A DNA stretch of 64,000 nucleotides from Brevibacterium luteolum (GTDB lineage: Bacteria > Actinomycetota > Actinomycetes > Actinomycetales > Brevibacteriaceae), in assembly GCF_013004595.1 (NCBI RefSeq), contig NZ_JABEMC010000002.1:310001-374000 (forward strand). Reading direction: 5' to 3'. The notes beneath the pieces were generated by a model. The model saw nothing but the letters and a program-made list of their open reading frames with translations. It made no database searches and was not told the origin of the DNA. The translations under genes were made by a program, and so were the position numbers. Within the stretch, counting starts at the first letter, position 1. Every line of letters starts with the position of its first letter. Below are positions 2,851 to 30,681 of the stretch, piece by piece.

Positions 2851-4530
2851 CTAGGCGGCTAAGCCGAGGTCATCCTGTGGTTTCTCGACGTCGAAGAGCC
2901 AGGAGACGCACTCTGCGAGATTGAAGCCGTAACCGCCGCCGAAGGTGCTGATGCGATCAGGTCCGTAGAGCTGCTCGAACGGGCAGGCCGTGAGATTCAG
3001 CGGCTCTGACATGACCTCGGTGACCTCGTCGAGGTCGTCGGGCGGGTGCTCCGACGGCGTCCAGTCGATGGTGTCCTGCGTGTGTCCTGGGGGTGCCAGG
3101 AGCAGATGGGTTTCGAACTTGCCGACATCCCGGCCGTCTTCGGTGAGGAAGACGAACCCGGTGCTTCCCTGCCGGGCCCCGGAGTGCGGTGCATCGGTGC
3201 GGGCGATGCGCAGGTGGTGCTCATGCACGGCGATGTGGTGGGAGCGGCACAGCAGGATGAGGTTGTCGAGGTCAGTCGGCCCTCCTTCCGACCAGGGCTG
3301 ACGGTGGTGCGCCTCCAGCCGGCGGCGTCTGCCGCAGCCGGGGAACTGGCACAGTCCCAGGTCTCGAACGCTGAGGGCCAGACGCTGTCGAGAGCTCGCC
3401 AGCCGCTTCGTCCGCCCGAGCACCAGCACGTCACCGAATCGGTCGAGTGCGGCACCGATGATCGCCGAGGTGCACGCCAGCCGGGCTGACGACTCCGCAG
3501 AGATCGCCCCGTACCCGTCGACATAGCTCTTCTGCTCTCCCGCAGACGTCCCCGCGGGGACGTCTCCGGCATCGTCGGGTACTGGCTGCGTCTGCACCTG
3601 CGTCTGTATCTGCGCCTGTTCCTGTGTCTGCACCTGTGCCTGCGCCTGCGCGAGGGTGTCGGGTGAGACGTGGACGACCATCGTCGCGCGGGCCGCATCG
3701 GTGCGTGAGCCGTTGGCTGCATCGGAGCCGCAGCGCACGAGCTCCATCAGCGCTTCGGCTTGGGTGGGGAAGCCGTCGGCGTGGACGCTGCTGGGGTTCT
3801 CCGGCACCTCTGGTTCCCCGGCAGCAGCTGCTTCCCCAGCGGCTTCGGCCTGCTCGCGGACGAGCCGGTCATGGGCGGCGTTGACCGCAGCGAGGATCTC
3901 CGCGGCCTCGGTCTCGGGCACGTCGATGAGGATCCGTGCCCGCCCCTGCCCGTTCGGCAGGACGGTGAACCGGTCCTTGTCCCCGCTGATGAGCTCCTGC
4001 CGCTCGTCATGCTTGACGAGCAGTGAGTACGTGCTCACCATCTTCGACAGCTGCTCGGCGGTGGCGAGGACGACGATCTCGGCCGCTCGCCTGCCGTCGA
4101 TGCGATCGGCGACCCGGGTGATCGCCCGGACCTTCGAATACGAGACCCGTCCGACGGCGAACAGCGAGGCCACCTCCGGCAGCTTGCGCAGCGCGCGCAT
4201 GACGCGCAGATATTCGCGTGCGGTGTGCACCTGCACTTCGCACACGAATGACACCCAGTGCGCCAGGCTGCGGATGCCGATCCAGCCTTCCCAGATGCGG
4301 GTGCGCTCGACCTCGTCGAGCAGCGCCAGCAGCCTGGCCTGACACTGCGAGACGTGCGCAATCGCCTGTTTGACGGCGAGCACGAGGGCATCCGGATCCT
4401 CACCGGCCACCCCCAGGGAGGGAAAGCCCTCGATCGTGCTCAGCCGTGCGCCGAGCTCATCGGCCCCGGTTGCTCTGCCTGTCGCGGTATCGATCTCGTC
4501 CGTCTCGGTCATATCCGTCATCGCCATCAC
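2851..4530 (-). CDS. DUF222 / HNH endonuclease-domain protein (13E12-repeat-like)
   Basis: Protein of 559 residues with an N-terminal DUF222 region (about residues 40-230) and a C-terminal HNH nuclease motif. The latter is visible as CQFPGC, then LEAHHRQPWSEGG, then NLILLCRSHHIAVHEH, with Cys pairs and catalytic His residues present. The family is common and multicopy in Actinobacteria and of uncertain function; nuclease activity is plausible but not proven here. A Gln-rich alternating stretch (Ala/Val/Thr-Gln pairs) and the peptide DVPAGTS, encoded by a dispersed palindrome, sit in the linker. The gene ends in GLAA, where the Leu is TTA inside the recurrent CGGCTTAGCCG word. The gene is monocistronic and convergent with the acetyltransferase. 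Confidence 0.9.
   Translation of the reverse strand: MMAMTDMTETDEIDTATGRATGADELGARLSTIEGFPSLGVAGEDPDALVLAVKQAIAHVSQCQARLLALLDEVERTRIWEGWIGIRSLAHWVSFVCEVQVHTAREYLRVMRALRKLPEVASLFAVGRVSYSKVRAITRVADRIDGRRAAEIVVLATAEQLSKMVSTYSLLVKHDERQELISGDKDRFTVLPNGQGRARILIDVPETEAAEILAAVNAAHDRLVREQAEAAGEAAAAGEPEVPENPSSVHADGFPTQAEALMELVRCGSDAANGSRTDAARATMVVHVSPDTLAQAQAQVQTQEQAQIQTQVQTQPVPDDAGDVPAGTSAGEQKSYVDGYGAISAESSARLACTSAIIGAALDRFGDVLVLGRTKRLASSRQRLALSVRDLGLCQFPGCGRRRRLEAHHRQPWSEGGPTDLDNLILLCRSHHIAVHEHHLRIARTDAPHSGARQGSTGFVFLTEDGRDVGKFETHLLLAPPGHTQDTIDWTPSEHPPDDLDEVTEVMSEPLNLTACPFEQLYGPDRISTFGGGYGFNLAECVSWLFDVEKPQDDLGLAA
2856..2866. repeat. CGGCTTAGCCG word, copy 1
   Basis: Inside the last codons of the DUF222 gene on the minus strand, read GGC-TTA-GCC (Gly-Leu-Ala). 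Confidence 0.7.
3544..3565. repeat. Dispersed GC palindrome, copy 2 (22 bp, in coding sequence)
   Basis: The same 20-bp palindrome as at 2236, extended by one matching base pair at each end. It is in frame in the DUF222 gene on the minus strand and encodes Asp-Val-Pro-Ala-Gly-Thr-Ser. Confidence 0.85.
3586..3655. repeat. Hexamer-type low-complexity repeat encoding alternating Gln
   Basis: About twelve imperfect six-base units of the form CTGYRY on the plus strand. On the minus strand they encode a run of (Ala/Val/Thr/Ile/Glu)-Gln pairs in the DUF222 protein linker. The unit length is a multiple of three, so copy-number change by slippage would keep the frame. Confidence 0.75.
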
Positions 4531-4654
4531 GGTCCCCTGTCACCGGGCAGTCACCTGCCCATTCGATACGTACATCCACGCTAGACTCCGGCACTGACAT
4601 CGTGGGCTGACCTGGGGCGATGATGGCGAGCGGGGAACCCGCCGGCCAGTCAGC

Positions 4655-5536
4655 TCAGCGGCGGCCACCACCTCGGGAACGGCCACCTCGGGAACGGCCA
4701 CCTCGGGAACGGTCGCCTTGGGAACCGGTGCCGCCACGCGGTGACCAGCCGCAGCCAGCGACCAGCGCGTAGAGGCCAGCCCACTGCTCAGCCGACAGGT
4801 CCTTGGGCAGGGTGCTCGCGCCGAGGCCCTCGCGGGCCAGCCAGCCCTTGACCGCCTGACGGGCGCGCTGCCCGACGATCCGGCTGAGGATCTCGGGCAG
4901 CCCGCGCCCGCGGCCGGTGAACACCGCGTGGACGAACCCGCGGTAGGCCCGCCGGTCGCTTTCGGCGAGCAGGGGCGCAGCGCGCCGGGTCATCCGCAGC
5001 ATCCCGCCGTCGACGCTCGGCATCGGCCGGAAGGCACTGCGAGGCACCCGGCCGAGCAGCGTGAAGTCGATCCACGGCCACCACTGGGCGGTCATCATCG
5101 AGGCACCGCCCACCCCGGCCCGGCGCCGGGCGACCTCCCACTGCACGAGGAGCACCGCCTCCTGCCAGTGCGGGATCGGCAGGATGTGGCGCAGCATCGC
5201 CGTCGTCAGGTGGTACGGCAGATTGCCGACGATGACGCATCTGCCGGCCGGCAGATGCCAGCGCAGGAAGTCGGCGGTGACGATCTCGACCGGCGGCCCG
5301 TCGCTGGGTGCGGTGAGCTCGCGGCGCAGCGCGGCGGCGTTGCGCGGGTCGATCTCCACCGCAGTGAGAGGCCGGCCGAGCGCGGCGAGCCGGTGTGTCA
5401 GGGCGCCGCGGCCGGGCCCGATCTCGATGATCGGTCCGCGGGATTCGGCGACGGCGCCGATGAGGGTGGTGATGGTGTGTGAGTCGATGAGGTAGTTCTG
5501 GCCGTGCTCATGACGGCCGCCACGATACGTGGGCAT
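4655..5536 (-). CDS. erm: Erm-type 23S rRNA (adenine-N6)-methyltransferase
   Basis: SAM-dependent rRNA methylase of 293 residues. Erm enzymes methylate A2058 of 23S rRNA and confer macrolide-lincosamide-streptogramin B resistance. Visible motifs are GQNYL (residues 12-16), the SAM loop IIEIGPGRGALT (36-47), the acidic VEID (60-63), ADF (88-90) and the catalytic NLPYH (105-109). The later WWPWIDFTLLGRVPRSAFRP region matches Erm proteins better than KsgA, whose adenosine dimethylase activity is related. The C-terminus ends in repeated Ser-Arg-Gly-Gly units, as in several actinomycete Erm proteins, here encoded by a 15-bp tandem repeat. No mobile element flanks it, so it looks like a resident chromosomal gene. 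Which drugs it protects against is not shown by the sequence. Confidence 0.88.
   Translation of the reverse strand: MPTYRGGRHEHGQNYLIDSHTITTLIGAVAESRGPIIEIGPGRGALTHRLAALGRPLTAVEIDPRNAAALRRELTAPSDGPPVEIVTADFLRWHLPAGRCVIVGNLPYHLTTAMLRHILPIPHWQEAVLLVQWEVARRRAGVGGASMMTAQWWPWIDFTLLGRVPRSAFRPMPSVDGGMLRMTRRAAPLLAESDRRAYRGFVHAVFTGRGRGLPEILSRIVGQRARQAVKGWLAREGLGASTLPKDLSAEQWAGLYALVAGCGWSPRGGTGSQGDRSRGGRSRGGRSRGGGRR
4668..4727. repeat. 15-bp tandem repeat in the erm tail
   Basis: Three exact copies of CCACCTCGGGAACGG at 4668-4682, 4683-4697 and 4698-4712 and a diverged fourth. On the minus strand they encode the Arg-Gly-Gly-Arg-Ser repeats at the end of the Erm protein. Confidence 0.9.
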
Positions 5537-5694
5537 GATGTGGGACGCTCCGAAGAAGTCTGGCGTCCGGGCAGCACAATGTCTCCGCCCGGCTGGTCAC
5601 AGCGGAGCGGCGAAACCTGGGAATGGGGAATTCGAAGCAGGGTCCGCCGCTCAGAAGCGGAGACGGCCCCAAACGATAGCCTCAGTTGCTGACA
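5537..5694 (-). promoter_or_regulatory. Upstream region of erm with a possible structured leader
   Basis: This 158-bp gap upstream of erm contains complementary 8-mers, GTCTCCGC at 5581-5588 and GCGGAGAC at 5657-5664, that could pair in the transcript. I found no ATG-started leader peptide; a GTG-started frame (GTG at about 5601 reading leftward) runs into erm out of frame. Attenuation of erm is only a possibility. Confidence 0.2.
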
Positions 5695-8469
5695 TCATGA
5701 TGACACTGATGATACCGGTCCCGAGGCGGTGGTGTCGATGTCGACCTCGTCGAGGCCGTCGTCGTCGAGTTCGGCATCGGAGGCCACATCGAGCAGCTCG
5801 TCGAGCTGCTGGGCAACACGGATGTAGCCCAGGTGCGAGTACGCCTGCGGGTGGTTGCCCAGGTGCTGTTCGGCGATCGGCTCGTACTCCTCGGGAAACA
5901 GGCCGGTGGGCCCCATGAGGTTGTCGAGCCGCCGGAACAGGTCGCGGGCATCGGCGATCCGCCCGACCTTGATGAAGGCCTCGATGAGCCAGGTGGTGCA
6001 GATGTGGAAGCCGCCTTCGAGTCCGGGCAGCCCGTCATCGTAGTGGTAGCGGAACACCGTCGGCCCGACCCGCAGGTCGCGTTCGATCGCGTCGACGGTG
6101 GCGATGAACCGCTCATCGTCTGCCGGCAGAAGGCCGGAGAGCCCGACGAACAGGCAGGCCGCGTCGAGGTCGTCCTCGCCGTAGGCCACCGTGTAGGCGC
6201 CGACCTTCTCATTCCAGCCGCGGGTGATGACGTCCTCGGCGATGGTTTCGCGCAGCCGCCGCCACGCCCCGGGCATCGTGCGGCCGAACCGCTCGGCGAT
6301 CCGGATCGCCCGGTCGACGGTCACCCAGCACATCACCTTCGTGTATACGTTGTGCTTCGGGGCCCGGCGGGCCTCCCAGATGCCGTGGTCGGGTTCGTGC
6401 CAGCGGCGCTCAACGGCAGTGACCATATCGCAGGTGAGCTTCCAGTTCTCCTCCGACAGCGTGCCGACGGCCGCGGTGAAGTCGTCGAGCAGCTCGGTGA
6501 CCGGGCCGAACACGTCGAGCTGCACCTGATGCTCAGCGGCGTTGCCCACCCGCACCGGCCGCGAGCCCGCATAGCCGGGCAGATGCTCCAGCACCGCCTC
6601 GGTCGTGAGCGCTGAGCCGTCGACGGCGTAGAGCGGGTGGAGCTGTTCGGGCCCGACCGTCATCTCCAGGATCCCGGCCAGCCATGCCAGGAAGCCCTCC
6701 GCCTCGGCGGTGGAGCCCAGGCTCAGCAGGGTGCGCACGGTCATCGAGCCGTCGCGCAGCCAGCAGTAGCGGTAGTCCCAGTTGCGGATGCCGCCGATCC
6801 CCTCGGGCAGGGAGGAGGTCGCGGCGGCGAGCACGCCGCCGGTGGGCACGTGGCACAGGGCGCGCAGGGTGATCGCCGAGCGGGTGACCTCGTCGGTCTT
6901 GAGTTCGGGCAGGGTGAGGCCGGTGACCCAGTTGCGCCAGTAGCCGGCCGCGCGCCGGCGCACGAAGGACTCTCCGCCGGCGAGCAGGTAGTCCGTATCG
7001 GCGAAGGACCCGCCGCACACGAGCACCAGCACGAGCTTGGCGCGCTCCTGCGTGGTCGGCACGACGCGGGCCACGGCGGTGTCGGAGCCGTCTTCGCTGA
7101 TGATGTCGAAGTCGACGCCGGGAGCGTGGAGCATCACCGGCTCCGAGGTGCCGAGCACCCGCACACCGTCGCCGACCTTCTCCAGCCGGATCGGGTACGA
7201 GCCGAAGTCCGGGCGCGGGGCGAACCGGATCTCGGCCTCGGCGTCGCCGGTGAGCACGCGCACGAGCACGGTGTCGAGGCTGTCCTCGGACACCGGGGCG
7301 AGGTAGTCGCGGGCGGTGAGCCCGGCCCACCGGGTCTCGACGATGGTGGTGTCGCGCTGATAGCGCTGGGTCAGCGACTTCTGCTTGCGGGCATCCGCGC
7401 CCGAGGCGGTGGCTGGGGCGACCGAGTAGTAGCCGGCGGCTGGGGAGCCGAGGATCTCGGAGAACAGGGAGGCCGAGTGGGGCAGTGGGTGCGGCATCCA
7501 GCAGATCCGGCCGCCGGGGTCGATGAGCGCGGTCGACTGCCCGTTGGCGAGTATCGAGTGCCGTTCGATCGGCACGGCGGTCTGGCCGAACAGCCAGGAG
7601 CGGCGCAGCTCGAAGATGCTCGAGAGCACGAGCGAGACGGTCTCGGGGTCGGCAAGCTGGAAGCCTGCGGCGGTGTCGACGCAGGGGCGGCCGGAGACGG
7701 CCTTGCGGCAGTCGAGCGGGGCGACCGTGATGCCCAGGTCGGTGCTCGTCAGGGTCTCCAGAGCCCGCTCATCTGAGGTGTCGTCGCCGATGTAGACGAC
7801 CGCGGCCGCTCCGAGGCGTTCGCGCAGCCCATTCAGCGCCTCGCCCTTGGTGGATTCGACGACGGTGAGGTCGGCGACCTCTTTGCCGCGGACCACGGAC
7901 ACGGCGACGTGCCGGGCCATCTGCGTGATGCCGGCTTCGACGACGGCCCGGGCATCGGGGTCGAGGCCGCGCAGATGCACGGCCACACCGGTGGGTTTGA
8001 GCTCGAACTGCGCCTCGGGCACCATCCGCGCCAAGGAGGCCACCGACTGCTGCAGGTCCTTCAGGGCCGCCTTCGCCTCGGCGTCGAGGGCGTCGATGGC
8101 GTCGATATCGGTCTCCGAGCCGTGGGAGCCGACGAGATGGACCTCACGCGGCAGCCGCGACATCGCTGCGAGGTCGCGCAGGGACCGGCCGGAGATGACC
8201 GCGGCGTTGGTGTCGGGCAGGGCGGCCAGTGCGCGCATGCTGATGAGGCTGATGGGCAGCGGATAGGCGTGGGTGGGCTTGTCGACGATCGGAGCGATGG
8301 TGCCGTCGTAGTCGGTAGCGATGAGCAGCTTGGGGGTCCGGGCCAGGCGGACGATCTCTGCGAACAGCTCGGCATCAAGGGTGCGGGCGGCCTCGGCGAG
8401 GTCGCCGAGCGGGCCCGAGGTGGGGGCTGCGGGATCCCAGGAGTCGAGCAGGTCGAGAGATGCGGTCAT
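5695..8469 (-). CDS. Trehalose-6-phosphate phosphatase fused to a GH15 glucan/trehalose hydrolase
   Basis: Two-domain protein of about 924 residues. The N-terminal HAD phosphatase domain (about residues 35-260) shows DYDGTIAPI with the nucleophile Asp, AVISGRSL, VGSHGSE and GDDTSDE, as in OtsB. The rest (about residues 300-910) is a GH15 (alpha/alpha)6 glycosidase of the glucoamylase/trehalase type, seen in GGIRNWDYRYCWLRDGS and LEGGFHICTTWLIEA. Such fusions are known in Actinobacteria. The phosphatase would yield trehalose, and the GH15 part may hydrolyse trehalose or an alpha-glucan. The ATG at 8469 is preferred because GAGGA lies just before it; an in-frame ATG at 8520 would add 17 residues. 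No otsA is nearby. Confidence 0.87.
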   Translation of the reverse strand: MTASLDLLDSWDPAAPTSGPLGDLAEAARTLDAELFAEIVRLARTPKLLIATDYDGTIAPIVDKPTHAYPLPISLISMRALAALPDTNAAVISGRSLRDLAAMSRLPREVHLVGSHGSETDIDAIDALDAEAKAALKDLQQSVASLARMVPEAQFELKPTGVAVHLRGLDPDARAVVEAGITQMARHVAVSVVRGKEVADLTVVESTKGEALNGLRERLGAAAVVYIGDDTSDERALETLTSTDLGITVAPLDCRKAVSGRPCVDTAAGFQLADPETVSLVLSSIFELRRSWLFGQTAVPIERHSILANGQSTALIDPGGRICWMPHPLPHSASLFSEILGSPAAGYYSVAPATASGADARKQKSLTQRYQRDTTIVETRWAGLTARDYLAPVSEDSLDTVLVRVLTGDAEAEIRFAPRPDFGSYPIRLEKVGDGVRVLGTSEPVMLHAPGVDFDIISEDGSDTAVARVVPTTQERAKLVLVLVCGGSFADTDYLLAGGESFVRRRAAGYWRNWVTGLTLPELKTDEVTRSAITLRALCHVPTGGVLAAATSSLPEGIGGIRNWDYRYCWLRDGSMTVRTLLSLGSTAEAEGFLAWLAGILEMTVGPEQLHPLYAVDGSALTTEAVLEHLPGYAGSRPVRVGNAAEHQVQLDVFGPVTELLDDFTAAVGTLSEENWKLTCDMVTAVERRWHEPDHGIWEARRAPKHNVYTKVMCWVTVDRAIRIAERFGRTMPGAWRRLRETIAEDVITRGWNEKVGAYTVAYGEDDLDAACLFVGLSGLLPADDERFIATVDAIERDLRVGPTVFRYHYDDGLPGLEGGFHICTTWLIEAFIKVGRIADARDLFRRLDNLMGPTGLFPEEYEPIAEQHLGNHPQAYSHLGYIRVAQQLDELLDVASDAELDDDGLDEVDIDTTASGPVSSVSS

Positions 8470-8573
8470 GGTGTCCTCGTGGTGCAGGTGGTGCGGGGGC
8501 GCCCGGTGGGCAAAGCGCATTCAGTGTAGTGGCTTGCCCGCGCCCAGGCGAACGGCCGCCTGCCGCCGGTGTC

Positions 8574-12078: not shown

Positions 12079-12498
12079 TCAGGCGTCTCCGGTCATGCTG
12101 ATCGTCAGCTCATCGCCTGACTGCGTGATCTTCGCGGCGGCTAAGCCGGTTTCGGCTGGGCCGGAGAGCGGCTCTCCGGTCTTCGGGTCGAACCGGGAGC
12201 TGTGACAGGGGCAGATGATCTCCTCTTCCGTCACCGTCTGCACCAAGCAGCCCTGGTGCGGGCAGATCGCGTTGAACGCGTGGAAGTCCCCCTCGGTGGG
12301 CTGGGCGACGACGTACCGGTCGTCGACGACGACACCTGAGCCGACCGGCACCTCGGCCGCGGCCACGGTCGAGGGCTCGACGATGTCGTCGTCAGTGCCC
12401 GAGCAGCCTGACAGCGCTGCAGTCCCGCCGATGCTGGCGGCACCACCGGCCAGGGCTGACAGCTGCACCATGCGCCTGCGGCTCATCTCGTTGCTCAT
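12079..12498 (-). CDS. Rieske [2Fe-2S] Tat-type lipoprotein
   Basis: Exported protein of 139 residues. The N-terminus has a twin-arginine signal (SRRRMVQLSALAGG) followed by a lipobox (LSGC), so it should be exported folded and lipid-anchored. The Rieske cluster ligands are all present: CPHQGC and CPCHSSRF (Cys-x-His ... Cys-x-x-His), and SRFDP and GEPLSGPAE are typical of the fold. It is a short stand-alone Rieske protein, not the QcrA subunit. The start overlaps the stop of the DUF421 gene by 4 bp (ATGA), making it the last gene of a coupled three-gene unit. A CGGCTTAGCCG word encodes Gly-Leu-Ala near the end. Confidence 0.9.
   Translation of the reverse strand: MSNEMSRRRMVQLSALAGGAASIGGTAALSGCSGTDDDIVEPSTVAAAEVPVGSGVVVDDRYVVAQPTEGDFHAFNAICPHQGCLVQTVTEEEIICPCHSSRFDPKTGEPLSGPAETGLAAAKITQSGDELTISMTGDA
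12138..12148. repeat. CGGCTTAGCCG word, copy 2
   Basis: In frame in the Rieske gene on the minus strand as GGC-TTA-GCC. Confidence 0.7.
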
Positions 12499-13166: not shown

Positions 13167-14260
13167 CGGAGCACCTCGCGCAGCACCGGCCAGGTGCGCT
13201 TCATCCGTTCCCGTCCGTAGGCGGCGCGCGGATCATCGGCCCGGGCGGTGAGTGTGCGGGAGGTCCAGATGCAGGCATTGAGGCACAGCCGGGTGAACGC
13301 GGCGTGCTCGATGAGGCCGAGCTCGGTTCCCGTCAGCTCGGCGGGCGTGCCGGCGACAGCAGTCTGATAGGCGGCCACGGCCTGGCGCAGTGCTGTCAGC
13401 GGCCGGTCCGTGCCGAGCATCGTGTAGGCCGCAGCGATCGCCAGCTCGGCCACCCGTGGGGCGGTGCGCGCATCGCCGAAGTCGATGATCCCGGTGATCT
13501 TCCCGTCGCCGACGAGCAGATTGAAGTCATTGAGGTCCTGGTGGACGACCTGCCTCTCAAGCCCGTCCAGCTGCGGGACGATGTCGGCCTCGAAGCGCTG
13601 CGCGGCCGCCCGGGCCAGGGCGAGGTCGCCGGAGAGCTGGCCGCTGACCTCGGCCGCAACCTGTCCGGCGGCTTCGAGGCTGGCGATGCGCTGACAGGCG
13701 AAGAGGACGTTGGCACCGGTGGTCTCGAACGACCAGGGGTGCACCATGGGACCGGGTTCCCCGGCCATGCCAGCCAGTGCGTTGACCACCGCAGCTGCCG
13801 TCCGGCCCACCTGGGCGGGGTAGTTCTCGGGCAGGTGAGCGCCGGCAGCGACCCGGCCGGGCAGGTACTCCTGGATGCGTATGAGCGCCGGCTGCGTCCC
13901 CGCGGGGACGTCGACGCTGGCGACGAACGGCCGGTGCTCCTCCCCTGCCCGGGTGTGGCCCGCCTCGGCGACCCCCGCGTCGGCAGCGGCGTCTGTCAGG
14001 GCCGGGACCTGGCCGGCGACCGGCAGGCAGGCCCGGGCAGCGGTCTCCTGCACGCGGGTGATCCAGTCGATGTGGCCCGGGCTCATCGTGCGGGTGGGGT
14101 ATTCGGCCTTGAGCACGTAGTCGCGGCCGGCGGCGCGCAGGCGCACGTTGATGGCGATCTCGCCGGGCAGGAACTCGCCGACCTCGGCGTCGAGGCCGAA
14201 GTGGGTGCGGCAGATCTCGGTGAGCTCTGCGGCGGTGAGCGTGTGCAGCGGCCGGTTCAT
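13163..14260 (-). CDS. APH/choline-kinase-fold small-molecule kinase (hydroxylysine-kinase-like)
   Basis: Soluble kinase of 365 residues with the aminoglycoside-phosphotransferase fold. The catalytic loop is VVHQDLNDFN with the catalytic Asp, and the metal-binding IIDFGD follows. The ATG at 14260 gives a normal N-terminus (MNRPLHTLTAAEL). The gene is divergent, 70 bp away, from a class III aminotransferase of the phospho-lyase subgroup. In vertebrates a kinase of this fold and a lyase of that subgroup act in sequence on hydroxylysine, so a kinase/phospho-lyase pair acting on an amino alcohol is my inference. The peptide DVPAGT is encoded by a dispersed palindrome in the middle. Aminoglycoside resistance is unlikely from context. 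Confidence 0.82.
   Translation of the reverse strand: MNRPLHTLTAAELTEICRTHFGLDAEVGEFLPGEIAINVRLRAAGRDYVLKAEYPTRTMSPGHIDWITRVQETAARACLPVAGQVPALTDAAADAGVAEAGHTRAGEEHRPFVASVDVPAGTQPALIRIQEYLPGRVAAGAHLPENYPAQVGRTAAAVVNALAGMAGEPGPMVHPWSFETTGANVLFACQRIASLEAAGQVAAEVSGQLSGDLALARAAAQRFEADIVPQLDGLERQVVHQDLNDFNLLVGDGKITGIIDFGDARTAPRVAELAIAAAYTMLGTDRPLTALRQAVAAYQTAVAGTPAELTGTELGLIEHAAFTRLCLNACIWTSRTLTARADDPRAAYGRERMKRTWPVLREVLR
13895..13910. repeat. Dispersed GC palindrome, copy 3 (16-bp core, in coding sequence)
   Basis: CGTCCCCGCGGGGACG in frame in the kinase gene (minus strand), contributing Val-Pro-Ala-Gly-Thr. Confidence 0.8.
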
Positions 14261-14330
14261 ATGTTCAGGGTATCGGTTCGGGCCGGTGGAATCTGTACCG
14301 TCCGGGCTGAGGATGTGGGACGCTGGGGCC

Positions 14331-15632
14331 ATGGCGCAGATGCACATGGCCAACGCCTTCGATCCCGAATCCGCTCCCGAGGTGCCGGCGCGCACGGCTG
14401 CCCTGCTCGCCCGGCGCGACGCGGCGCTGTCATCGAGCTACCGGCTGTTCTACCGGGAGCCGGTCGAGGTCGTGCGCGCCGAGGGCGCGTGGCTGTACGG
14501 CTCGGACGGCCGCCCGCACCTGGACATGTACAACAACGTCCCGGCGATCGGGCATGCGCATCCGGCCGTGACCGAGGCGGTGACCCGGCAGCTGGGCCGG
14601 CTCAACACGCACACCCGGTATCTGACCGAGGGGATCCTCGACTACTCCGAGGCCCTGCTGGCGACCTTCCCGGCGGCGCTGGACCAGGTCACCTATGCCT
14701 GCTCCGGGTCCGAGGCGGTGGACCTGGCGGTCCGGATGGCCCGGTTCGCCACCGGTCGTGAGGGTGTCATCATCTCCGCCAACGCCTACCACGGCACAAC
14801 GGCGCTGGCAGCGAGCCTGTCGCCGAGCCTGGGGGTCAACAATCCCATCGCCGAGGCGGTGGCGAGAGTCGACATGCGTCCGGGGATGAGCGTGGAGACG
14901 CTGGCCGCTGAGGTGCGGGCGGCAGCAGCCGATCTGGAGGCGCGCGGGCACGGGGTGGCGGCGGTGATCTTCGATTCGATCTTCTCCTCTGATGGGGTGC
15001 TACCCGAACCGGTGGGCGGCTTAGCCGCTGCTGCAGATGTGGTGCGGGCCTTCGGCGGGTGTGTCATCGCCGATGAGGTGCAGGCCGGGTTCGGGCGCAC
15101 CGGTACGATGTGGGGGTTCTCCCGGCACGGCATGGAGCCGGATCTCGTGGTGCTCGGCAAGCCGATGGGCAACGGGATGCCGATCTCCGCGGTCGTCAGC
15201 CGGCGGGAGATCTCCGATGCGTTCGGCGCGAGTGTGCGCTATTTCAACACCTTCGGCGGCAATCCGGTGTGCATCGCGGCAGCCCAGGCAGTCCTCGATG
15301 TCATCACCGGGTCGCTGCTGGCCCGGCATGCAGAGCAGCTCGGGCAGGTGCTCGCCGACGGCTTAGCCGTTCGTGCCGGGCGCACCGACCTGCTCGGGGA
15401 TGTGCGAGCGGCCGGGCTGTTCGTCGGCGTCGATGTGCGCGGGTCCGCTGCGCGGCCACCGGCTGAGGCCGCTGCGGCGATCGTCAACGGGCTGCGCCAA
15501 CGCCGGGTGCTCATCTCCGCCTCGGGACCGGGCGCCGATGTGCTCAAGATCCGCCCGCCGCTGGTCTTCGATGAGCCCGAGGCCGAGGTGTTCTTCGCAG
15601 CACTCGACGACACGCTCGACGAGCTGAGCTGA
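14331..15632 (+). CDS. Class III PLP aminotransferase, phospho-lyase (AGXT2L)-like
   Basis: PLP enzyme of 433 residues. The PLP Lys is in VVLGKPMGNGMP and the cofactor Asp in VIADEVQAGFGRTG. The N-terminal pattern YREPVEVVRAEG, then YNNVPAIGHAHP and LNTHTRYL, resembles the ethanolamine-phosphate and phosphohydroxylysine phospho-lyases (AGXT2L1/AGXT2L2) more than ornithine or 4-aminobutyrate aminotransferases. The likely reaction is elimination of phosphate and ammonia from a phosphorylated amino alcohol. A kinase of the matching type is divergently encoded at 13163-14260. The gene carries two CGGCTTAGCCG words. The start at 14331 is the first ATG after the intergenic gap; a second in-frame ATG lies nine bases later. 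Confidence 0.82.
   Translation: MAQMHMANAFDPESAPEVPARTAALLARRDAALSSSYRLFYREPVEVVRAEGAWLYGSDGRPHLDMYNNVPAIGHAHPAVTEAVTRQLGRLNTHTRYLTEGILDYSEALLATFPAALDQVTYACSGSEAVDLAVRMARFATGREGVIISANAYHGTTALAASLSPSLGVNNPIAEAVARVDMRPGMSVETLAAEVRAAAADLEARGHGVAAVIFDSIFSSDGVLPEPVGGLAAAADVVRAFGGCVIADEVQAGFGRTGTMWGFSRHGMEPDLVVLGKPMGNGMPISAVVSRREISDAFGASVRYFNTFGGNPVCIAAAQAVLDVITGSLLARHAEQLGQVLADGLAVRAGRTDLLGDVRAAGLFVGVDVRGSAARPPAEAAAAIVNGLRQRRVLISASGPGADVLKIRPPLVFDEPEAEVFFAALDDTLDELS
15017..15027. repeat. CGGCTTAGCCG word, copy 3
   Basis: In frame in the aminotransferase gene as GGC-TTA-GCC. Confidence 0.7.
15359..15369. repeat. CGGCTTAGCCG word, copy 4
   Basis: Second copy in the same aminotransferase gene, again read GGC-TTA-GCC. 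Confidence 0.7.
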
Positions 15633-15641
15633 TCCGGCGAC

Positions 15642-15659
15642 ACGTCCCCGCGGGGACGT
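15642..15659. repeat. Dispersed GC palindrome, copy 4 (18 bp, between convergent stops)
   Basis: ACGTCCCCGCGGGGACGT fills most of the 26-bp gap between the aminotransferase stop and the convergent TRIC gene stop. In this place it could act as a bidirectional terminator stem. Confidence 0.8.
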
Positions 15660-16532: not shown

Positions 16533-16548
16533 CGTCCCCGCGGGGACG
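16533..16548. repeat. Dispersed GC palindrome, copy 5 (16 bp)
   Basis: CGTCCCCGCGGGGACG in the gap between the TRIC gene start and the end of the cyclodeaminase-like gene. Confidence 0.8.
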
Positions 16549-16583: not shown

Positions 16584-17507
16584 TCAGCCGTCGACGGCGT
16601 CGGCGAGCGCGGTGAGGAGGGCGACCTCGGTGCCGGCTAAGCCGCGGGAGAGGTACACGCGGCGGCCGTCGGTGCGCGGGCGGACCTCGTTGTTGGCGAT
16701 CTGGCCGAGCGGGATGATCGCCTCGGCCCCGCCGGGCGGCAGCAGCGCCTCTGGGTCGGCCAGGTGCTGGTCGCGTGCGTCGGTGACGACGTAGGCGCCG
16801 GTGAGCAGGTCGTCAGGGATCTCCGAGCCCGAGGCGGCGGCTGGCCCGAGAGTGGAGATGAGGCAGTCCTCGGCAAGCCAGCTGGTGTCGATGACCGGGG
16901 TCTGGGAGGTGGTGGCGAGAATGACGATGCTTGCCTCGCGCACCGCCTCTTCGGCGGTCTCCACGGCCGTGGCGGTGAGACCGTAGCTGCTGGCGGCATG
17001 TTCAGCCAGTTCAGCGCGGCGTTTGAGAGTCGGCGCGTAGATGCGCACGTCCTCGATCCCGACGACTGCGCGCAGCGCCCACAGCTGCTGGGCGGCCTGC
17101 CGGCCGGCGCCGATGAGTGCGACCCGGTGCGGGCCATCGCCTGCGACATAGCGGGCGGCCGCACCGCCGAGCGCGCCGGTGCGGCGGTTGCCGAGCAGGG
17201 AGCCCACCGCGATCGCCTCGAGCGCGCCGGTCTCCCGGTTGAAGGCCGTGACGAGCTGCTCTTCTTCTGCGCCACCGGGAAGCTGCCGGTCGCGCACATA
17301 GGACCGGTAGCCCAGATGCGTGGTGGTCGCACCGGCTGTGATGACGAGGGTGCCAGCATCGAGGCCGGCCGCCTGCAGCGGTGCGCGCAGCCGGGGCGGG
17401 CAGGCGAACTCGTCTCGTCCATCGGCGGCGAGCGCGGCGCACATCGTGTCGACGGCCAGGCGCGGGGTCAGGCGGGTGCGGATATCGGCGTCGGTGAAGA
17501 TGCGCAT
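16584..17507 (-). CDS. Ornithine cyclodeaminase / mu-crystallin family protein
   Basis: NAD(P)-dependent enzyme of 307 residues from the ornithine cyclodeaminase, alanine dehydrogenase and ketimine reductase superfamily. Visible are the Rossmann loop (HRVALIGAGRQAAQQLWAL), the substrate-side GYRSYV and the later VILATTSQTPVI and LGPAAASGSEIPDDLL segments. The substrate is uncertain. The start is ATG 17507 (MRIFTDADIR), the usual N-terminus of the family. A CGGCTTAGCCG word encodes Gly-Leu-Ala near the C-terminus. Together with the phospho-lyase and kinase it suggests local amino-acid catabolism, but no operon link is visible. Confidence 0.87.
   Translation of the reverse strand: MRIFTDADIRTRLTPRLAVDTMCAALAADGRDEFACPPRLRAPLQAAGLDAGTLVITAGATTTHLGYRSYVRDRQLPGGAEEEQLVTAFNRETGALEAIAVGSLLGNRRTGALGGAAARYVAGDGPHRVALIGAGRQAAQQLWALRAVVGIEDVRIYAPTLKRRAELAEHAASSYGLTATAVETAEEAVREASIVILATTSQTPVIDTSWLAEDCLISTLGPAAASGSEIPDDLLTGAYVVTDARDQHLADPEALLPPGGAEAIIPLGQIANNEVRPRTDGRRVYLSRGLAGTEVALLTALADAVDG
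16634..16644. repeat. CGGCTTAGCCG word, copy 5
   Basis: In frame in the cyclodeaminase-like gene on the minus strand as GGC-TTA-GCC. Confidence 0.7.
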
Positions 17508-25511: not shown

Positions 25512-25547
25512 GAGGGTCTCCTCCGCCGAAGTTCCACAGCCTGATGG

Positions 25548-25904: not shown

Positions 25905-26166
25905 ATTCCCAGTCTCCGCCTGTGGCCGGCTGAGCAGAATGCGGTTCTCCCTGCAGCCCGGTCCGGAAATCCCCACCCTCGGCACCACCGGTGACCCCCA
26001 CCTCGGGAGCGGGAACTGCAGCGGCACGCATCCCCCATCGGCCCCTGACAGCACGGGCAGGCAGTGCTAGGGTCGAATGTGCGGCAGGTCACACCCCAGG
26101 TCCTTCCGCCCGGACGGCGCCGTCCGGCAGACATCACATCCCCACCCCGAAGGACACCCCTCCGAC

Positions 26167-27081
26167 ATGCCCCCGACTCATCCCCACTCCCGTTCCGGTG
26201 CCGCGCGCCTGACGCTGCTGCCCGCGCTGGCCTTCATCGCCGCCCTCCTGCTCGGTGCTGAACTCCTCACCAGCCCAGCCGCAGCTGCCCAGACTGCCCC
26301 GCTGCGCGTGCCGGTGACCTCGATGTCCGACGAGGCGGGCAGCCAGGCCGTCCTCATCGCCGACCCTGTGCCGCTGCCGGCAGGCGCCACCACCTCGCAG
26401 CTCGAACTCGACCTGCCCGGAGGCTGCCACCTGGGCGAGGGCGCCGAGCTCACCTGCACTGACAGCTCCTTCACCTTCACCGCGATGATCGCCACCCCAG
26501 ACGGGTTCAGCGACCCGGCCGTGAGCGCCACTGACACCGGTGTCGAGGTCACGACCGCCGAGCCGGCCGGTGAAGGCGAGCTGCTCGTGCCGATCTTCAG
26601 CCCCGCCGGGCTCGATGTCGATGACACCGCCTCGAAGCAGATGCTCGCCGAGCTGGTCCTCGGCAATGGCACCGCCGCGGCGCCTGACACGGCCGAGACC
26701 GCCGGCGCACCGCCGAGCCTGGCCCCGTATGCCGAGGCGATCGAGCGCCCGGAGCAGGTCACGGTTCCCAGCGACTACATCTACGACCCGGATCATGTGC
26801 AGAAGGCGCTGCACGACTACTGCACCTGGTCGCCGGACGCGTGGGGCAAGGCCGACTTCCGCGGGCCGTGCGCCCGGCACGACATGTGCATCGAGGTCGA
26901 CCTCGACCTGCCGCGCCCGGAGCGCAGGGAGCGCCGCAAGATCTGCGACAGCACTTTCCTCGACCATCTCGTGCAGAACTGCGACTACGGCTACTACGAT
27001 GCCGGCGTCAAACGCCGCGGCTGCCGAGTGATCGCCGGCCACTACTATGTCGCCGTGGCCGGGAAGACCGCGATCTCGTGA
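26167..27081 (+). CDS. Secreted prokaryotic phospholipase A2-domain protein
   Basis: Exported protein of 304 residues. The signal peptide is about residues 12-40 (LTLLPALAFIAALLLGAELLTSPAAAAQ). A middle beta-rich region of about 150 residues precedes a C-terminal bacterial PLA2 domain. The catalytic His-Asp pair is in FRGPCARHDMC, and four further Cys residues (DYCTW, KICDS, NCDYG and GCRV) suggest two or three disulphides. It would hydrolyse the sn-2 ester of phospholipids outside the cell. The long extra middle domain is more than Streptomyces PLA2 has. The stop overlaps the next start (GTGA). The start at 26167 is chosen from the signal peptide; an upstream ATG at 26077 is possible. Confidence 0.83.
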   Translation: MPPTHPHSRSGAARLTLLPALAFIAALLLGAELLTSPAAAAQTAPLRVPVTSMSDEAGSQAVLIADPVPLPAGATTSQLELDLPGGCHLGEGAELTCTDSSFTFTAMIATPDGFSDPAVSATDTGVEVTTAEPAGEGELLVPIFSPAGLDVDDTASKQMLAELVLGNGTAAAPDTAETAGAPPSLAPYAEAIERPEQVTVPSDYIYDPDHVQKALHDYCTWSPDAWGKADFRGPCARHDMCIEVDLDLPRPERRERRKICDSTFLDHLVQNCDYGYYDAGVKRRGCRVIAGHYYVAVAGKTAIS

Positions 27082-27470
27082 CCGGACGGATCCTGCCGCC
27101 GGTGCTCGTGGCCGCCTCGGTGGCGCTCATGTTCATCGGCGGGGCCATGCCGAGCCGGGCTGGGCTCGTCGTCGTCGACCTGCTGGCGATCGCGGCGGTG
27201 GCGGCTGCTGCCGGTCTCATCCTCATGCTGAGTCTGCGCGCCGCGCGCGAGGCGGTGGCTGGCGAGCGCTGGCTGCGGCGGGGAATCGCCGGGGTCGCGG
27301 TCGCCGCGGCGATCGGTGCGGTCGTGGCGATCGGGATGAACATCGCCGATCCGCTCGGCATCAGCTTCGCTGTGCCGATCATCTGGCTGCCCGCCTCGCT
27401 CGTGCTGCTGACGACCTCGCTCCTCGTCCTCGCACTGCCGAGTGGGCCGGCGCCGAGATGGCAATTGTGA
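27078..27470 (+). CDS. Small four-TM membrane protein coupled to the PLA2 gene
   Basis: Hydrophobic protein of 130 residues starting at a GTG overlapping the PLA2 stop. Four TM helices are visible (LPPVLVAASVALMFIGG, LVVVDLLAIAAVAAAAGLILML, GIAGVAVAAAIGAVVAIGM and IIWLPASLVLLTTSLLVLAL). Translational coupling suggests a role tied to the lipase, perhaps immunity or export, but this is conjecture. Family not recognised. Confidence 0.7.
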   Translation: MTGRILPPVLVAASVALMFIGGAMPSRAGLVVVDLLAIAAVAAAAGLILMLSLRAAREAVAGERWLRRGIAGVAVAAAIGAVVAIGMNIADPLGISFAVPIIWLPASLVLLTTSLLVLALPSGPAPRWQL

Positions 27471-27484
27471 CGCCGACCCATCGA

Positions 27485-27790
27485 TCACTCTCTATCGCCG
27501 GCGGCGTTGCGCCGGGATAACCGGCTTGCGCGTCTCATCCTGAGGAGAAGTCCGCAGACACCAGCAGCGATCCACAGCAGCACAATGGCTGTATACCCGC
27601 CCGTCGACACCGTCGCCGCACCGGCCGGGCTCTCACGCAGCCAGAACCCGGCTCCGAACACCGCAAGGCCAACCGGCAACATGATCAGGGTCGTGCGCCA
27701 GCGCGCGACGAGCCGGGCTGCGGCGTACCAAAACCAGCCGAAGAGAAATGCAAGCGGCAGCGCTCCTAGCACCAGCAAGATAGTCGACAT
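27485..27790 (-). CDS. Small three-TM membrane protein, unknown
   Basis: Protein of 101 residues with three TM helices (ILLVLGALPLAFLFGWFWY, TTLIMLPVGLAVFGAGFWL and AIVLLWIAAGVCGLLL) and a basic tail. The ATG at 27790 has GAGGGAG 6 bp upstream. It is convergent with the PLA2-linked gene; the two stops are 14 bp apart. Family not recognised. Confidence 0.65.
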   Translation of the reverse strand: MSTILLVLGALPLAFLFGWFWYAAARLVARWRTTLIMLPVGLAVFGAGFWLRESPAGAATVSTGGYTAIVLLWIAAGVCGLLLRMRRASRLSRRNAAGDRE

Positions 27791-27939
27791 GACTCCCTCA
27801 TCTCCTGAGATTCTTTACAATCGCGCCGCATGACCCGAGCCCAAAGAAGTTGGCATCTTCGCCGCTGCGAAGTGCCGTGGATTGCCGCGCGTGGTGTGAT
27901 TCGCAATGAGCGGAATCCTGCTGCTGCCGCGGCCTCGGG

Positions 27940-29253
27940 CTACGGCAGCAGCAGAATCACCCCGTGCAGGAACAGTCCGACGAGCGCGCCGATGACGGTG
28001 CCGTTGATGCGGATGTACTGCAGGTCCTTGCCGACGTAGAGCTCGATGCGCTCGGAAGCCTCCTTCGCATCCCAGCCGGCGATCGTATCGGAGATGACGC
28101 TGGCGATCTCCGGGCCGAAGGACTCGGCCAGGTCGCCGACGGTGATCGCGAGCCGATTGTCGATCGCGTGGGAGAACTCTGCGTCTTCGACCATCCGGGT
28201 CGCGGTCTGGTTGAGCAGCGCACGCAGCCGCTGGTGCACCTCGCCGGAGGTGTCGAGCACCGCCCCGCGCAGCAGCCGCTTGAGCGAGGACCACACATCG
28301 AGGACGGCTTGGACGACGCCCTCTTCGCGCAGCAGGTCGTCGATGACGTTCTCGGCGCGCTTCGCGATCGAGGTGTCCTCGCGCAGGTTGGCGGCGAGTT
28401 CGAGCAGCCACCGGTCGAGGGCCTGCCGGGCCTTGTGGTAGCGGTTGTCGCGCACATCGGAGATCCATTCGAGGACTTCGCGGCGCAGCCGGCGCGCGAC
28501 CCCTTCGTTGACGAAGGCCGGCACCCAGTCCGGGGCCTTCTGCGCGACCACGTCGTCGATGACCTGCGGGTTGGCCGCCAGCCACGTGTACGCCTCCCCG
28601 ACGACGAGGTCGACGAGCCGGTGGTGGGCCCCGTCCTGCACGATCTCGTGGACGAGCCGGCCGAGCACCGGCGACTTGTGCGTATCGACGAGCTTGGGCA
28701 CCAGCACCTCGCGGGTCAGCGCCTCGATCGCATCATCATCGACGCGCCTGAGCACATACTCCAGGCCCTGCCCGGCACGGGTGACGACGATCTCCTGGTT
28801 GCCCGGCTCCTTCAGCCAGCCGCCGATGCGCGCGGTCACCTGGGCGTTGCGGATCTTCGCGGCGACGGTGACGGAGGTGAGGAAGTTCGCGGCGACGAAG
28901 TTCGACATGCTCTCGCCCAGCACGTCCTTCTTGCGCGGGATGATCGCCGTGTGCGGGATCGGCAGCCCGAGCGGGTGGCGGAAGAGCGCGGTGACCGCGA
29001 ACCAGTCGGCGATCGCCCCGATCATCGCCGCCTCGGACCCGCGGGCGACGAACCCCCACACGCCGGTCAGGTCGGTGAAGACGTGGGTGAGAACGAAGAT
29101 GCACGCCGCCAGCACGAGCAGCGCGGTCGCCAGCTGGCGCATCTTCCTCAGCGCACGCGCCCGCTCGAGGTCGCCGAAGGTGTCGTCGATGCGCGCCGGT
29201 GCGGTCGGTCCGGTGGATCCGGCCGCCGCCGAGGTGGTGGGCGAGTGAGTCAT
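27940..29253 (-). CDS. DUF445 family membrane protein
   Basis: Protein of 437 residues with TM helices near both ends and a long helical middle. The DUF445 signature is clear near residue 80: AMIGAIADWFAVTALFRHPLGLPIPHTAIIPRKK. The C-terminus (VGKDLQYIRINGTVIGALVGLFLHGVILLL) is also typical. The family is widespread and its function is unknown; an envelope or transport role is often suggested. Length is usual. The start at 29253 is followed by a Ser/Ala-rich cytoplasmic tail. Confidence 0.92.
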   Translation of the reverse strand: MTHSPTTSAAAGSTGPTAPARIDDTFGDLERARALRKMRQLATALLVLAACIFVLTHVFTDLTGVWGFVARGSEAAMIGAIADWFAVTALFRHPLGLPIPHTAIIPRKKDVLGESMSNFVAANFLTSVTVAAKIRNAQVTARIGGWLKEPGNQEIVVTRAGQGLEYVLRRVDDDAIEALTREVLVPKLVDTHKSPVLGRLVHEIVQDGAHHRLVDLVVGEAYTWLAANPQVIDDVVAQKAPDWVPAFVNEGVARRLRREVLEWISDVRDNRYHKARQALDRWLLELAANLREDTSIAKRAENVIDDLLREEGVVQAVLDVWSSLKRLLRGAVLDTSGEVHQRLRALLNQTATRMVEDAEFSHAIDNRLAITVGDLAESFGPEIASVISDTIAGWDAKEASERIELYVGKDLQYIRINGTVIGALVGLFLHGVILLLP

Positions 29254-29877
29254 GTCCCTATTCTGACACCTCGGCCCGGACTCCCCACCCGGAAGACACG
29301 ACTGCCCGCTCTCGCCCTTGCCGCCTCGATCGCGGTGCTCGGCACCGCCTGCTCAGCACCTTCGCACAGCGGCGGATCCTCAGCAGCTGCCGGTGCAGAT
29401 CAGCAGGCGGCCTCGGAATCCGCCCGCGCGCTCAGTGAGAAGATCGCCGCGCACTGGCCGCTGGTGGCGAAGGCCCGGCCCGGGACGGACTGCTCCGGCC
29501 ACGTCGCAGTCCTCTTCCACCGCGACGACAAGGGCGAGATCGTCACAGGGGCCTGACACCTCGGGCACCCGGAAGCTCGCCGACTCCGAACGCACCGGCC
29601 TCACCTCTCCCCCGGGCGGGCGGGTGCAGCCCGGGTGAGTTCGGCGGCAAGCCGGCAGTTCTGCTGGCTTGCCGCCGATCAGCAGATGCTGGATGACCCT
29701 CGAGCTGAGGAGTTCTGCCTGCTCGCCACGCATGGGCTCGGGCGGTGCGCACTTCATCGTCGTCGACGGCAGGGAAGTCACCACCGGCTTCACCAACACC
29801 TATCCGATGGGGTATCGGCGGAGAGAACCACCGATGCCGATGGCCGGGCCGTCTATACGGTCACGGCCACCGGCTGA
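29245..29877 (+). pseudogene. Decayed lipoprotein gene
   Basis: The plus strand encodes a lipoprotein-like start: basic KTRLP, hydrophobic ALALAASIAVLG, lipobox TAC and an Ala/Ser-rich spacer, then SARALSEKIAAHWPLVAKARPGTDCSGHVAVLFHRDDKG. The frame stops at 29556. Protein-like pieces continue in another frame (GTRKLADSERTGL; GGAHFIVVDGREVTTGFTNTYPMG) and again in the first frame (ERTTDADGRAVYTVTATG, stop 29877). At least two or three frameshifts would be needed to rejoin them. It looks like a recently decayed secreted protein gene; sequencing error cannot be excluded. Confidence 0.5.
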
Positions 29878-29886
29878 GGCCGGAAC

Positions 29887-30681
29887 TCACTGCCATTCGG
29901 CAGTCTCCGGGTCCACACCTCGGGCGAAGGCGCCGGCAGCGATCACCTCGACGAGCCAGGCGGCTAAGCCGTCTGCGCGCTCATCGTAGTGCGCGGCGAA
30001 GCGCGGGTCGCTGACGTAGAGGCGCGAGATGCACACCTGCTTCTCGATGGTCATGTCGAACCACTGGCCGATCGAGGCGCGGTGCCGCTCGGCCAGCATG
30101 TTCGCCTCCTGGCTGCCGGGCTCGACTCCGCGCGTGAACGCGGCGACGAGTTCTGCCTCGAAGGCGTCCATGTCGTTCTTGACCTGCTGCCAGTCGGCGG
30201 CGGTCATCTTCTGCTTGATCGACTCGGACTGGGCCCATTCGTCGGTTTGGCCCCAGCGCTGCTGCGCTTCGGCCTCCCACTCGGGGTTCCAGTTCGGGCC
30301 GAGGATCTCAGCCTGCTGGGCTGCTGTCAGTTTCTCCATAGTGGTGGTCTCCATCATCCGTTCGACTGCAGAGACAACTCTCTGCAGCTGGTCGATACGT
30401 GTCAGGAGGGATTCCCGCTGTTCAGCCAGCTCTGCTGCCAGGTCGATGTCCGGATCGTCGAGGATCCGGCCGATCTCTGCCAGCGGCAGGCCGAGTTCGC
30501 GGAAGATGAGCACGCGGCGCAGCCGCTGCATATCGGCTGCCGTGTAGATGCGGTAGTCGGCCCACGTGCGTTCGCTCGGGCTGGCCAGCCCGATGGCGTC
30601 CCAGTGGTGCAGGGTTCGCACGCTGACGTCAAGCAGCCGGGCGGCCGCGCCGACTGTCAGCTCCGTGGTGTGCTCGTCCAT
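29887..30681 (-). CDS. MerR-family regulator with TipAS-like C-terminal domain
   Basis: Regulator of 264 residues. The MerR winged helix is at the N-terminus (LTVGAAARLLDVSVRTLHHWDAIGL, YRIYTAADMQRLRRVLIFRELGLPLAEI), followed by a coiled-coil dimerisation helix. The C-terminal half matches the TipAS antibiotic-recognition domain of TipAL: AEILGPNWNPEWEAEAQQRWG, WAQSESIKQKMTAADW and FDMTIEKQVCISRLYVSDPRFAAHYD. Such proteins bind thiopeptides or related drugs and activate promoters. No exporter gene is adjacent; the divergent neighbour is the rplI end. The start at ATG 30681 is the usual N-terminus. A CGGCTTAGCCG word encodes Gly-Leu-Ala near the C-terminus. Confidence 0.9.
   Translation of the reverse strand: MDEHTTELTVGAAARLLDVSVRTLHHWDAIGLASPSERTWADYRIYTAADMQRLRRVLIFRELGLPLAEIGRILDDPDIDLAAELAEQRESLLTRIDQLQRVVSAVERMMETTTMEKLTAAQQAEILGPNWNPEWEAEAQQRWGQTDEWAQSESIKQKMTAADWQQVKNDMDAFEAELVAAFTRGVEPGSQEANMLAERHRASIGQWFDMTIEKQVCISRLYVSDPRFAAHYDERADGLAAWLVEVIAAGAFARGVDPETAEWQ
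29961..29971. repeat. CGGCTTAGCCG word, copy 6
   Basis: In frame in the MerR gene on the minus strand as GGC-TTA-GCC. Confidence 0.7.

What the first reader, a model, noticed from the sequence alone, without database searches (positions are those of the whole stretch)
2856..29971. Six copies of CGGCTTAGCCG, all inside genes and all read GGC-TTA-GCC
Copies at 2856, 12138, 15017, 15359, 16634 and 29961 occur in five unrelated genes on both strands, and every one is in the same codon phase, giving Gly-Leu-Ala with the rare codon TTA. In high-GC Actinobacteria TTA codons are scarce and in Streptomyces depend on bldA tRNA. The near-palindrome could be a DNA-binding or modification site tolerated only in this frame, or a spreading element; it also places TTA codons in accessory genes, which could link them to one translational control.
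Basis: partly seen in the sequence, partly recalled or inferred. Interest (0 to 1): 0.7.

Follow-up and report, generated by a model that had tools for sequence, protein, structure and literature searches.

The report
Origin-centred palindrome hidden inside genes
A sharp 11-letter DNA palindrome sits inside unrelated genes around the replication origin of this bacterium and of a close relative, and behaves like a docking site for a still unknown protein that marks or organises that part of the chromosome.

Summary
In detail: six CGGCTWAGCCG copies in five genes, all read GGC-TTA-GCC. It is not chance. The genome has 15 copies; a codon-aware null expects 0.9 in genes. Sister G045 has 18, G055 8 (five in repeat-like sequence), 54 other congeners 0-2. 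The window holds dnaA, parAB and six parS. Ten of 15 copies are on the oriC contig; by synteny with one congener all 15 lie within about -478 to +267 kb of oriC. Thirteen of 15 are intact in G045; TTA is kept at 13 of 14 in-frame sites versus 59 of 200 other rare Leu codons, though versus non-motif TTA alone (5 of 8) the difference is not significant.
TTA is not the point: one shared copy spans a stop codon and a G045 copy reads Ala-Lys-Pro. The uniform phase mostly follows from where synonymous codons can spell the word (92 of 109 slots).
Best reading: a DNA-level binding site for an unidentified protein acting on the origin domain, working like matS, Noc or SlmA sites. Binder and function are inferred.

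The parts
2856..2866 (-). motif copy in the DUF222/HNH gene 2851-4527; TTA is codon 556 of 559 (stop included); intact in G045
12138..12148 (-). motif copy in the Rieske-domain gene (called 12079-12498; ORF runs to 12693); intact in G045; three congener homologues have Leu CTG, CTC, CTG here
15017..15027 (+). motif copy in class-III aminotransferase gene (called 14313-15632); intact in G045, with the same 342-bp spacing to the next copy
15359..15369 (+). second motif copy in the same aminotransferase gene; intact in G045
16634..16644 (-). motif copy in ornithine cyclodeaminase/mu-crystallin family gene (called 16584-17507, ORF to 17636); intact in G045; congener G003 has GGG-CTC-GCC with the same residues
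29961..29971 (-). motif copy in MerR-TipAS gene (called 29887-30708); G045 has CGGCTTAGCAG (TTA kept, one base changed)
50160..52672 (.). six exact parS-type sites (TTTCACGTGAAA), the only exact ones in the genome
50415..52497 (-). parB (50415-51605) and parA (51598-52497)
56458..57996 (+). dnaA; oriC is inferred to lie at about window 56-58 kb

Best explanation
CGGCTWAGCCG is the recognition site of a sequence-specific DNA-binding protein, probably a symmetric dimer, that works on the origin-proximal domain of the chromosome, for example by marking, organising or tethering it or by coupling its segregation to division. The sites are placed mainly in coding DNA by synonymous substitutions, which is why nearly all read Gly-Leu-Ala with TTA. 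Shown: enrichment, sharp 11-bp footprint, concentration around oriC, retention in the sister species, turnover by substitution. Inferred: the protein, its dimeric nature and the chromosome-maintenance role.
For: Number: 15 copies against 0.93 expected in genes from codon usage; 18 in sister G045, 0-2 in 54 other congeners. Location: 10 of 15 on the 444-kb contig that carries oriC (P 8e-6, including the six copies that drew attention); synteny with complete congener G003 puts the contigs of the other five beside it, so all 15 lie in about 745 of 2966 kb; counting the six window copies as one point, the chance is about 4e-5. By alignment or contig linkage the five G045-only copies fall in the same domain. 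Selection: TTA kept at 13 of 14 in-frame sites versus 59 of 200 other rare Leu codons (P 3e-6); exact word kept at 13 of 15 sites. Footprint: in 20 distinct sites the flanks reach at most 0.65 bits per position, against 1.57-2.62 inside; words differing at one of the eight outer positions total 6 in the 574-kb sample, about as expected. DNA level: one copy present in both species spans a stop codon and one G045 copy reads Ala-Lys-Pro in a MoaC-family gene. By the gene calls none of the 15 is intergenic.
Against: No binding protein was found. Against non-motif TTA codons only (5 of 8 kept) the conservation difference is not significant (P 0.12), and exact-word conservation against other CGGCNNNGCCG words is 13/15 versus 53/81 (P 0.09). 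Without the six window copies the oriC contig holds 4 of 9 (P 0.03). Contig order rests on synteny with one congener; in two more distant complete congeners the MoaA-like gene of C19 lies far from dnaB. One central neighbour, CGGCTTCGCCG, is also above expectation (20 vs 8.9), probably as an ordinary Gly-Phe-Ala coding word. Fifteen sites is fewer than the 24-52 of SlmA or about 70 of Noc. In a near/far k-mer comparison of 374 kb other words show equal contrast. Fifteen of 15 in genes is itself unremarkable in a gene-dense genome.
Confidence: 0.55

Rival explanations
1. The word is the operator of an ordinary transcription factor whose regulon happens to lie near the origin, acting from inside genes.
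For: A sharp, retained palindrome fits any dimeric regulator. The tightest cluster (four copies within 4.5 kb) lies among metabolic and transport genes.
Against: All 15 copies are inside called genes or at a stop codon, from codon 13 of 115 to codon 556 of 559; the Pfam families show no shared function. A regulon would not need an origin-centred range.
Confidence: 0.2
2. TTA codons in these genes place them under one translational control, as with bldA in Streptomyces (recalled).
For: TTA is very rare (53 of 15,859 Leu codons in the 574-kb sample, itself enriched for motif sites) and 14 of 15 copies use it.
Against: The outer C and G, beyond the three codons, are part of the word; a copy present in both species spans a stop codon and one G045 copy reads GCT-AAG-CCG; TTA occurs also in genes of RecF, MurJ and KhpB/Jag families, and motif copies in FtsW/RodA-family and MoaA-like genes.
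Confidence: 0.04
3. Mutational product: symmetric C-to-T change (for example deamination of a methylated CGGCCWGGCCG site on both strands) turns GGC-CTG-GCC into GGC-TTA-GCC.
For: Both changes are synonymous in this frame; CGGCCWGGCCG is the second most enriched odd 11-bp palindrome in the own sample (26 vs 8.5).
Against: Single-change intermediates are nearly missing (in frame with outer C and G: TTG 1, CTA 0, TTA 14); CGGCCWGGCCG shows no clear origin bias (4.7 per 100 kb near, 3.6 on C1, 6.0 in other distal stretches) and is not among the five top 11-bp palindromes listed for G045; counterparts at private sites include CTC, GGT-CTG and other words.
Confidence: 0.06
4. A spreading palindromic element or repeat.
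For: Copies number 15-18 in two sister species and 0-2 in 54 congeners; five of eight G055 copies do lie in repeat-like sequence.
Against: In own and G045 the copies share nothing beyond the 11 bp, and aligned counterparts of private or changed sites differ by substitutions, not insertion.
Confidence: 0.03
5. Selected by eye from very many words; a statistical fluke.
For: Many words recur in a 64-kb window; this one ranks 15th of 71 by a fourth-order Markov score and lower by fifth order.
Against: Genome count, sister-species count, retention, and the place of the nine copies outside the window were not used to choose it and agree.
Confidence: 0.02

Closest known systems
matS sites bound by MatP (E. 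coli Ter macrodomain)
   Same: Short word over-represented in one large chromosome domain; matS itself came from a screen of all 11-mers for words enriched in one domain (PMC4786541, passages seen).
   Different: Here the domain is the origin side and the word is unrelated; no MatP homologue was looked for. MatP-dependent ter organisation is called unique to enterobacteria (PMC7174722, passages seen).
Noc binding sites (B. subtilis) and SlmA binding sites (E. coli), nucleoid occlusion
   Same: Dispersed palindromes, under-represented in the terminus region; about 70 NBS with a 14-bp palindromic consensus and 24-52 SBS (PMC4726725, passages seen).
   Different: 15-18 sites in about a quarter of the chromosome; binder unknown; no link to division shown. 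Noc is a ParB-family and SlmA a TetR-family protein (same passages); neither was searched for here. C. glutamicum work speaks of bacteria lacking recognisable Min and nucleoid occlusion (PMC3566199, title and start of abstract in a listing).
parS / ParB
   Same: Origin-proximal palindrome; present in the same window.
   Different: parS here is the standard TTTCACGTGAAA, six copies in 2.5 kb; the present word is different and spread over hundreds of kb.
RefZ binding motifs of Bacillus (sites recalled; RefZ as a TetR-like regulator of FtsZ is mentioned in PMC4726725, passages seen)
   Same: Recalled: few origin-proximal sites at conserved positions.
   Different: Other phylum, sequence and number (recalled); not tested here.
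bldA / TTA regulation in Streptomyces (recalled)
   Same: Rare TTA codons in a high-GC actinobacterium.
   Different: The constraint is on the DNA word, not the codon.

Membership tests
Chromosome-domain binding motif (matS-like) | Word over-represented in the genome | tested here: met
   15 versus 0.93 expected in coding DNA; 0-2 in 54 congeners
Chromosome-domain binding motif (matS-like) | Confined to one chromosome domain | tested here: met
   10 of 15 on the oriC contig; all 15 in an origin-centred arc if the synteny order holds; draft assembly
Chromosome-domain binding motif (matS-like) | Bound by a dedicated protein | not testable with these tools
   no candidate identified (the gene comparison was inconclusive)
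Noc/SlmA nucleoid occlusion sites | Palindromic sites scarce in the terminus region | tested here: met
   all 15 copies on C12, C17 and C19, which synteny places around oriC; the terminus itself was not located
Noc/SlmA nucleoid occlusion sites | Bound by a ParB-family (Noc) or TetR-family (SlmA) protein that inhibits division | not tested
   no genome-wide search for a second ParB or for SlmA was run; one parB seen in the window
Noc/SlmA nucleoid occlusion sites | Consensus of Noc or SlmA sites | tested here: not met
   the word resembles neither consensus (both recalled)
parS | parS consensus | tested here: not met
bldA-type TTA control | Effect tied to the TTA codon | tested here: not met
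   stop-codon and Ala-Lys-Pro copies; TTA in RecF-, MurJ- and KhpB/Jag-family genes
Mobile palindromic repeat | Insertions with shared sequence | tested here: not met
   substitutions in aligned counterparts; no shared flanks
Restriction-modification target | Methylated or cut by a resident enzyme (depletion is only a tendency, recalled) | tested here: inconclusive
   the word is enriched and origin-centred, which argues against it; no methylation data

The most novel reading that the evidence does not exclude
A recently evolved origin-domain system found in two sister species of one actinobacterial genus: a protein with a new 11-bp specificity marks about a quarter of the chromosome around oriC, perhaps a functional stand-in for nucleoid occlusion or macrodomain factors in a group described as lacking recognisable ones, caught while its sites are still being gained and lost by mostly synonymous substitution.
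Probability: 0.35. Interest if true: 0.82.

Novelty: new variant of a known kind. Interest (0 to 1): 0.62.

Why it matters
Domain-marking DNA sites are known from a few model bacteria, and how such a system arises is open. Here two sister species carry many copies and 54 of the other 55 congeners held have two or fewer, so birth, drift and loss of sites can be read directly, and the binder can be sought by pulldown with a defined 11-bp bait. It also shows how a rare-codon pattern that suggests translational control can instead reflect selection on DNA.

Tried and rejected
Double deamination of CGGCCWGGCCG on both strands: looked attractive, disfavoured for lack of intermediates and of clear origin bias. 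Translational control and mobile element: disfavoured as above. General quasi-palindrome correction: rejected, since near-palindromes such as CGGCATCGCCG stay common. Search for an equivalent word near the origin of G003: only intergenic GCGCAATTGCGC repeats emerged. G055's eight copies: seven of eight lie outside called genes (a caller trained on another genome) and five of eight in ttagccg-rich, repeat-like sequence, so probably not the same thing. Search for clade-specific DNA-binding genes near the sites: inconclusive, because G003 was fetched only in part. Near/far k-mer comparison in 374 kb: the word is one of several with 8:0 contrast, so that test alone has little power. The genome-contig scan with the aminotransferase gave only distant genomes (best 58% protein identity) and was not used further. 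Ascertainment: the own sample of 574 kb holds all 15 sites by design; the first G045 stretches were chosen because they hold or flank G045 copies; the counterpart of the remaining own site was fetched later, lacks the word, and is included in the 13 of 15 and 13 of 14 counts; the 59 of 200 comparison and the 93.6% identity come from the first set only, with alignments under 78% identity or 400 bp dropped. Literature searches covered open-licence papers only; one search found none.

Full report
OBSERVATION. One search confirms six copies of CGGCTWAGCCG at the stated places. A codon-usage gene caller trained on this genome puts them in five genes, all in frame as GGC-TTA-GCC. The genes are unrelated by Pfam: DUF222/HNH, Rieske, class-III aminotransferase (two copies), ornithine cyclodeaminase family and MerR-TipAS.

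WHERE THE WINDOW IS. The window carries dnaA (56458-57996), parA and parB, ssb, ribosomal protein L9 and dnaB, and the only six exact parS-type sites of the genome. It is the replication origin region of a 2.97-Mb, 21-contig genome.

GENOME-WIDE. The word occurs 15 times; the reversed control pattern occurs 9 times, but congeners carry 0-35 of that control, so the control is not a good yardstick. Fourteen copies are GGC-TTA-GCC in sense frame; the fifteenth (C19:111391) contains the TAG stop of an aminotransferase gene. In a 574-kb sample that includes all 15 by design the word is the most over-represented odd 11-bp palindrome (15 vs 0.6, fourth-order Markov). Words that differ at one of the eight outer positions total 6, about as expected; of the central neighbours only CGGCTTCGCCG stands out (20 vs 8.9), a plausible Gly-Phe-Ala coding word. 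A codon-aware expectation is 0.18 in the sample, 0.93 scaled to the genome. Twenty distinct sites from two species (15 own, 5 only in G045) share no fixed base outside the 11; flank information is at most 0.65 bits per position.

PHASE. The uniform phase looked like the strangest part. Counting all places in 485 called genes where synonymous codons alone could spell the word gives 109 slots, 92 of them Gly-Leu-Ala read with TTA; 14 of 14 then has P 0.09. Under chance from codon usage the Ala-Lys-Pro frame would be commoner (0.102 versus 0.069 expected), so the data fit sites placed by selection through silent changes better than chance words. One search printed eight alignments of site positions to congeners G002, G003, G004 and G009: all eight have Leu (CTG or CTC); six are for the Rieske, cyclodeaminase and MerR genes, two for a 30%-identical aminotransferase paralogue; the HNH gene had no counterpart there.

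LOCATION. Ten of 15 copies are on the 444-kb contig C12, which holds oriC (P 8e-6; 4 of 9 without the window copies, P 0.03). The others are on C17 (2) and C19 (3). Protein synteny with the one-contig congener G003 orders C17-C12-C2-C19-C21-C1, so the copies lie from about -478 to +267 kb of oriC, by adding contig lengths; gaps are unknown. No copy is in C1 (759 kb) or any other contig. Counting the window copies as one point, the chance that the other nine fall in such an arc is about 4e-5. Against this: in two more distant congeners the best match of the MoaA-like gene of C19 (54-55% identity) lies far from dnaB, so the order rests on G003.

RELATIVES. In 57 genomes of the genus the counts are 15 (own), 18 (G045), 8 (G055) and 0-2 in the other 54. 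In 297 genomes of the order three have 10 or more: own, G045, and G269 with 11, not followed up. Of G055's copies seven of eight are outside called genes and five lie in repeat-like sequence. G045 is a close sister (93.6% identity over the 156 kb that aligned at 78% or better), with parS on the contig that carries ten of its copies. Of its 18 copies 16 are in the TTA frame, one is at the same stop codon as in the own genome, and one lies in a MoaC-family gene, read on the gene strand as GCT-AAG-CCG.

EVOLUTION. Thirteen of the 15 own copies are intact in G045; one has a changed base with TTA kept (window 29961), one reads GGT-CTG-GCC (C17:140578). Of five G045-only copies four have own counterparts: CGGGTTGAGCG (in a region only 72-76% identical), TGGCTTAGCCG, CGGCTTGTCCG (moaC, Asp-Lys-Pro in own) and CGGCCTCGCCG; one, in a FecCD-family gene, has none in the fetched sequence. 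Which state is ancestral was not tested. TTA is kept at 13 of 14 in-frame sites, against TTG 13/73, CTA 6/15, CTT 35/104 and non-motif TTA 5/8 (59 of 200 together, P 3e-6; against TTA alone P 0.12). Exact-word conservation against other CGGCNNNGCCG words is 13/15 against 53/81, P 0.09.

MECHANISM. The sum points to a DNA-binding site. Concentration around the origin, scatter through unrelated genes and lack of intergenic copies favour a chromosome-maintenance protein over a regulator. It works like matS or the Noc and SlmA sites, but membership in none is shown: no binder was found, and no search for a second ParB or for SlmA was run. A division or segregation role is inference.

LITERATURE. 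One search looked for the word and its 9-bp core: 114 papers hold one of five spellings, 15 were listed, and one of these (PMC11026511, a mycobacterial Fur-like regulator paper, listing only) holds the exact CGGCTAAGCCG once. I found no description of it as a chromosomal motif, which cover open-licence papers only. From PMC4786541, PMC7174722 and PMC4726725 I saw passages; of the others only listings.

Noticed in passing
window 2238-2253, 3547-3562, 13895-13910, 15643-15658, 16533-16548: A second palindrome, CGTCCCCGCGGGGACG, has 10 perfect copies in the genome and only 2 with one mismatch, five of them in this stretch; 20 of 25 other congeners searched have 1-23 copies, with clusters visible in the capped listing for G001, G010 and G012. 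Intergenic and intragenic; four of five window copies are intact in G045. Looks like a genus-wide operator or domain site.
   Followed up: partly
G000:C2:72099-72148 (L120:5000-5049): Two copies of the second palindrome start 34 bp apart, just beside the 3' end of a large transketolase-type (PDH E1-like) gene on the minus strand.
   Followed up: no
own sample and G045 sample: GGCGATCGCC, which contains the HIP1-type octamer GCGATCGC (name recalled), is over-represented (42 vs 18; 24 vs 8).
   Followed up: no
G003 stretches L146, L172, L173, L178, L180, L184: Seven copies of GCGCAATTGCGC outside called genes, within longer inverted repeats, in the fetched part of G003.
   Followed up: no
L216, L218, L219, L222 (G055): Sequence rich in ttagccg words, outside called genes, that holds five of G055's eight motif copies.
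   Followed up: partly
order member G269: Eleven copies of CGGCTWAGCCG in a genome of another family; positions not listed.
   Followed up: no
own sample, in-frame GGC-Leu-GCC: CTC is scarce in this context (5, versus 42 CTG) although CTC and CTG are about equally common overall (7595 and 7418).
   Followed up: no
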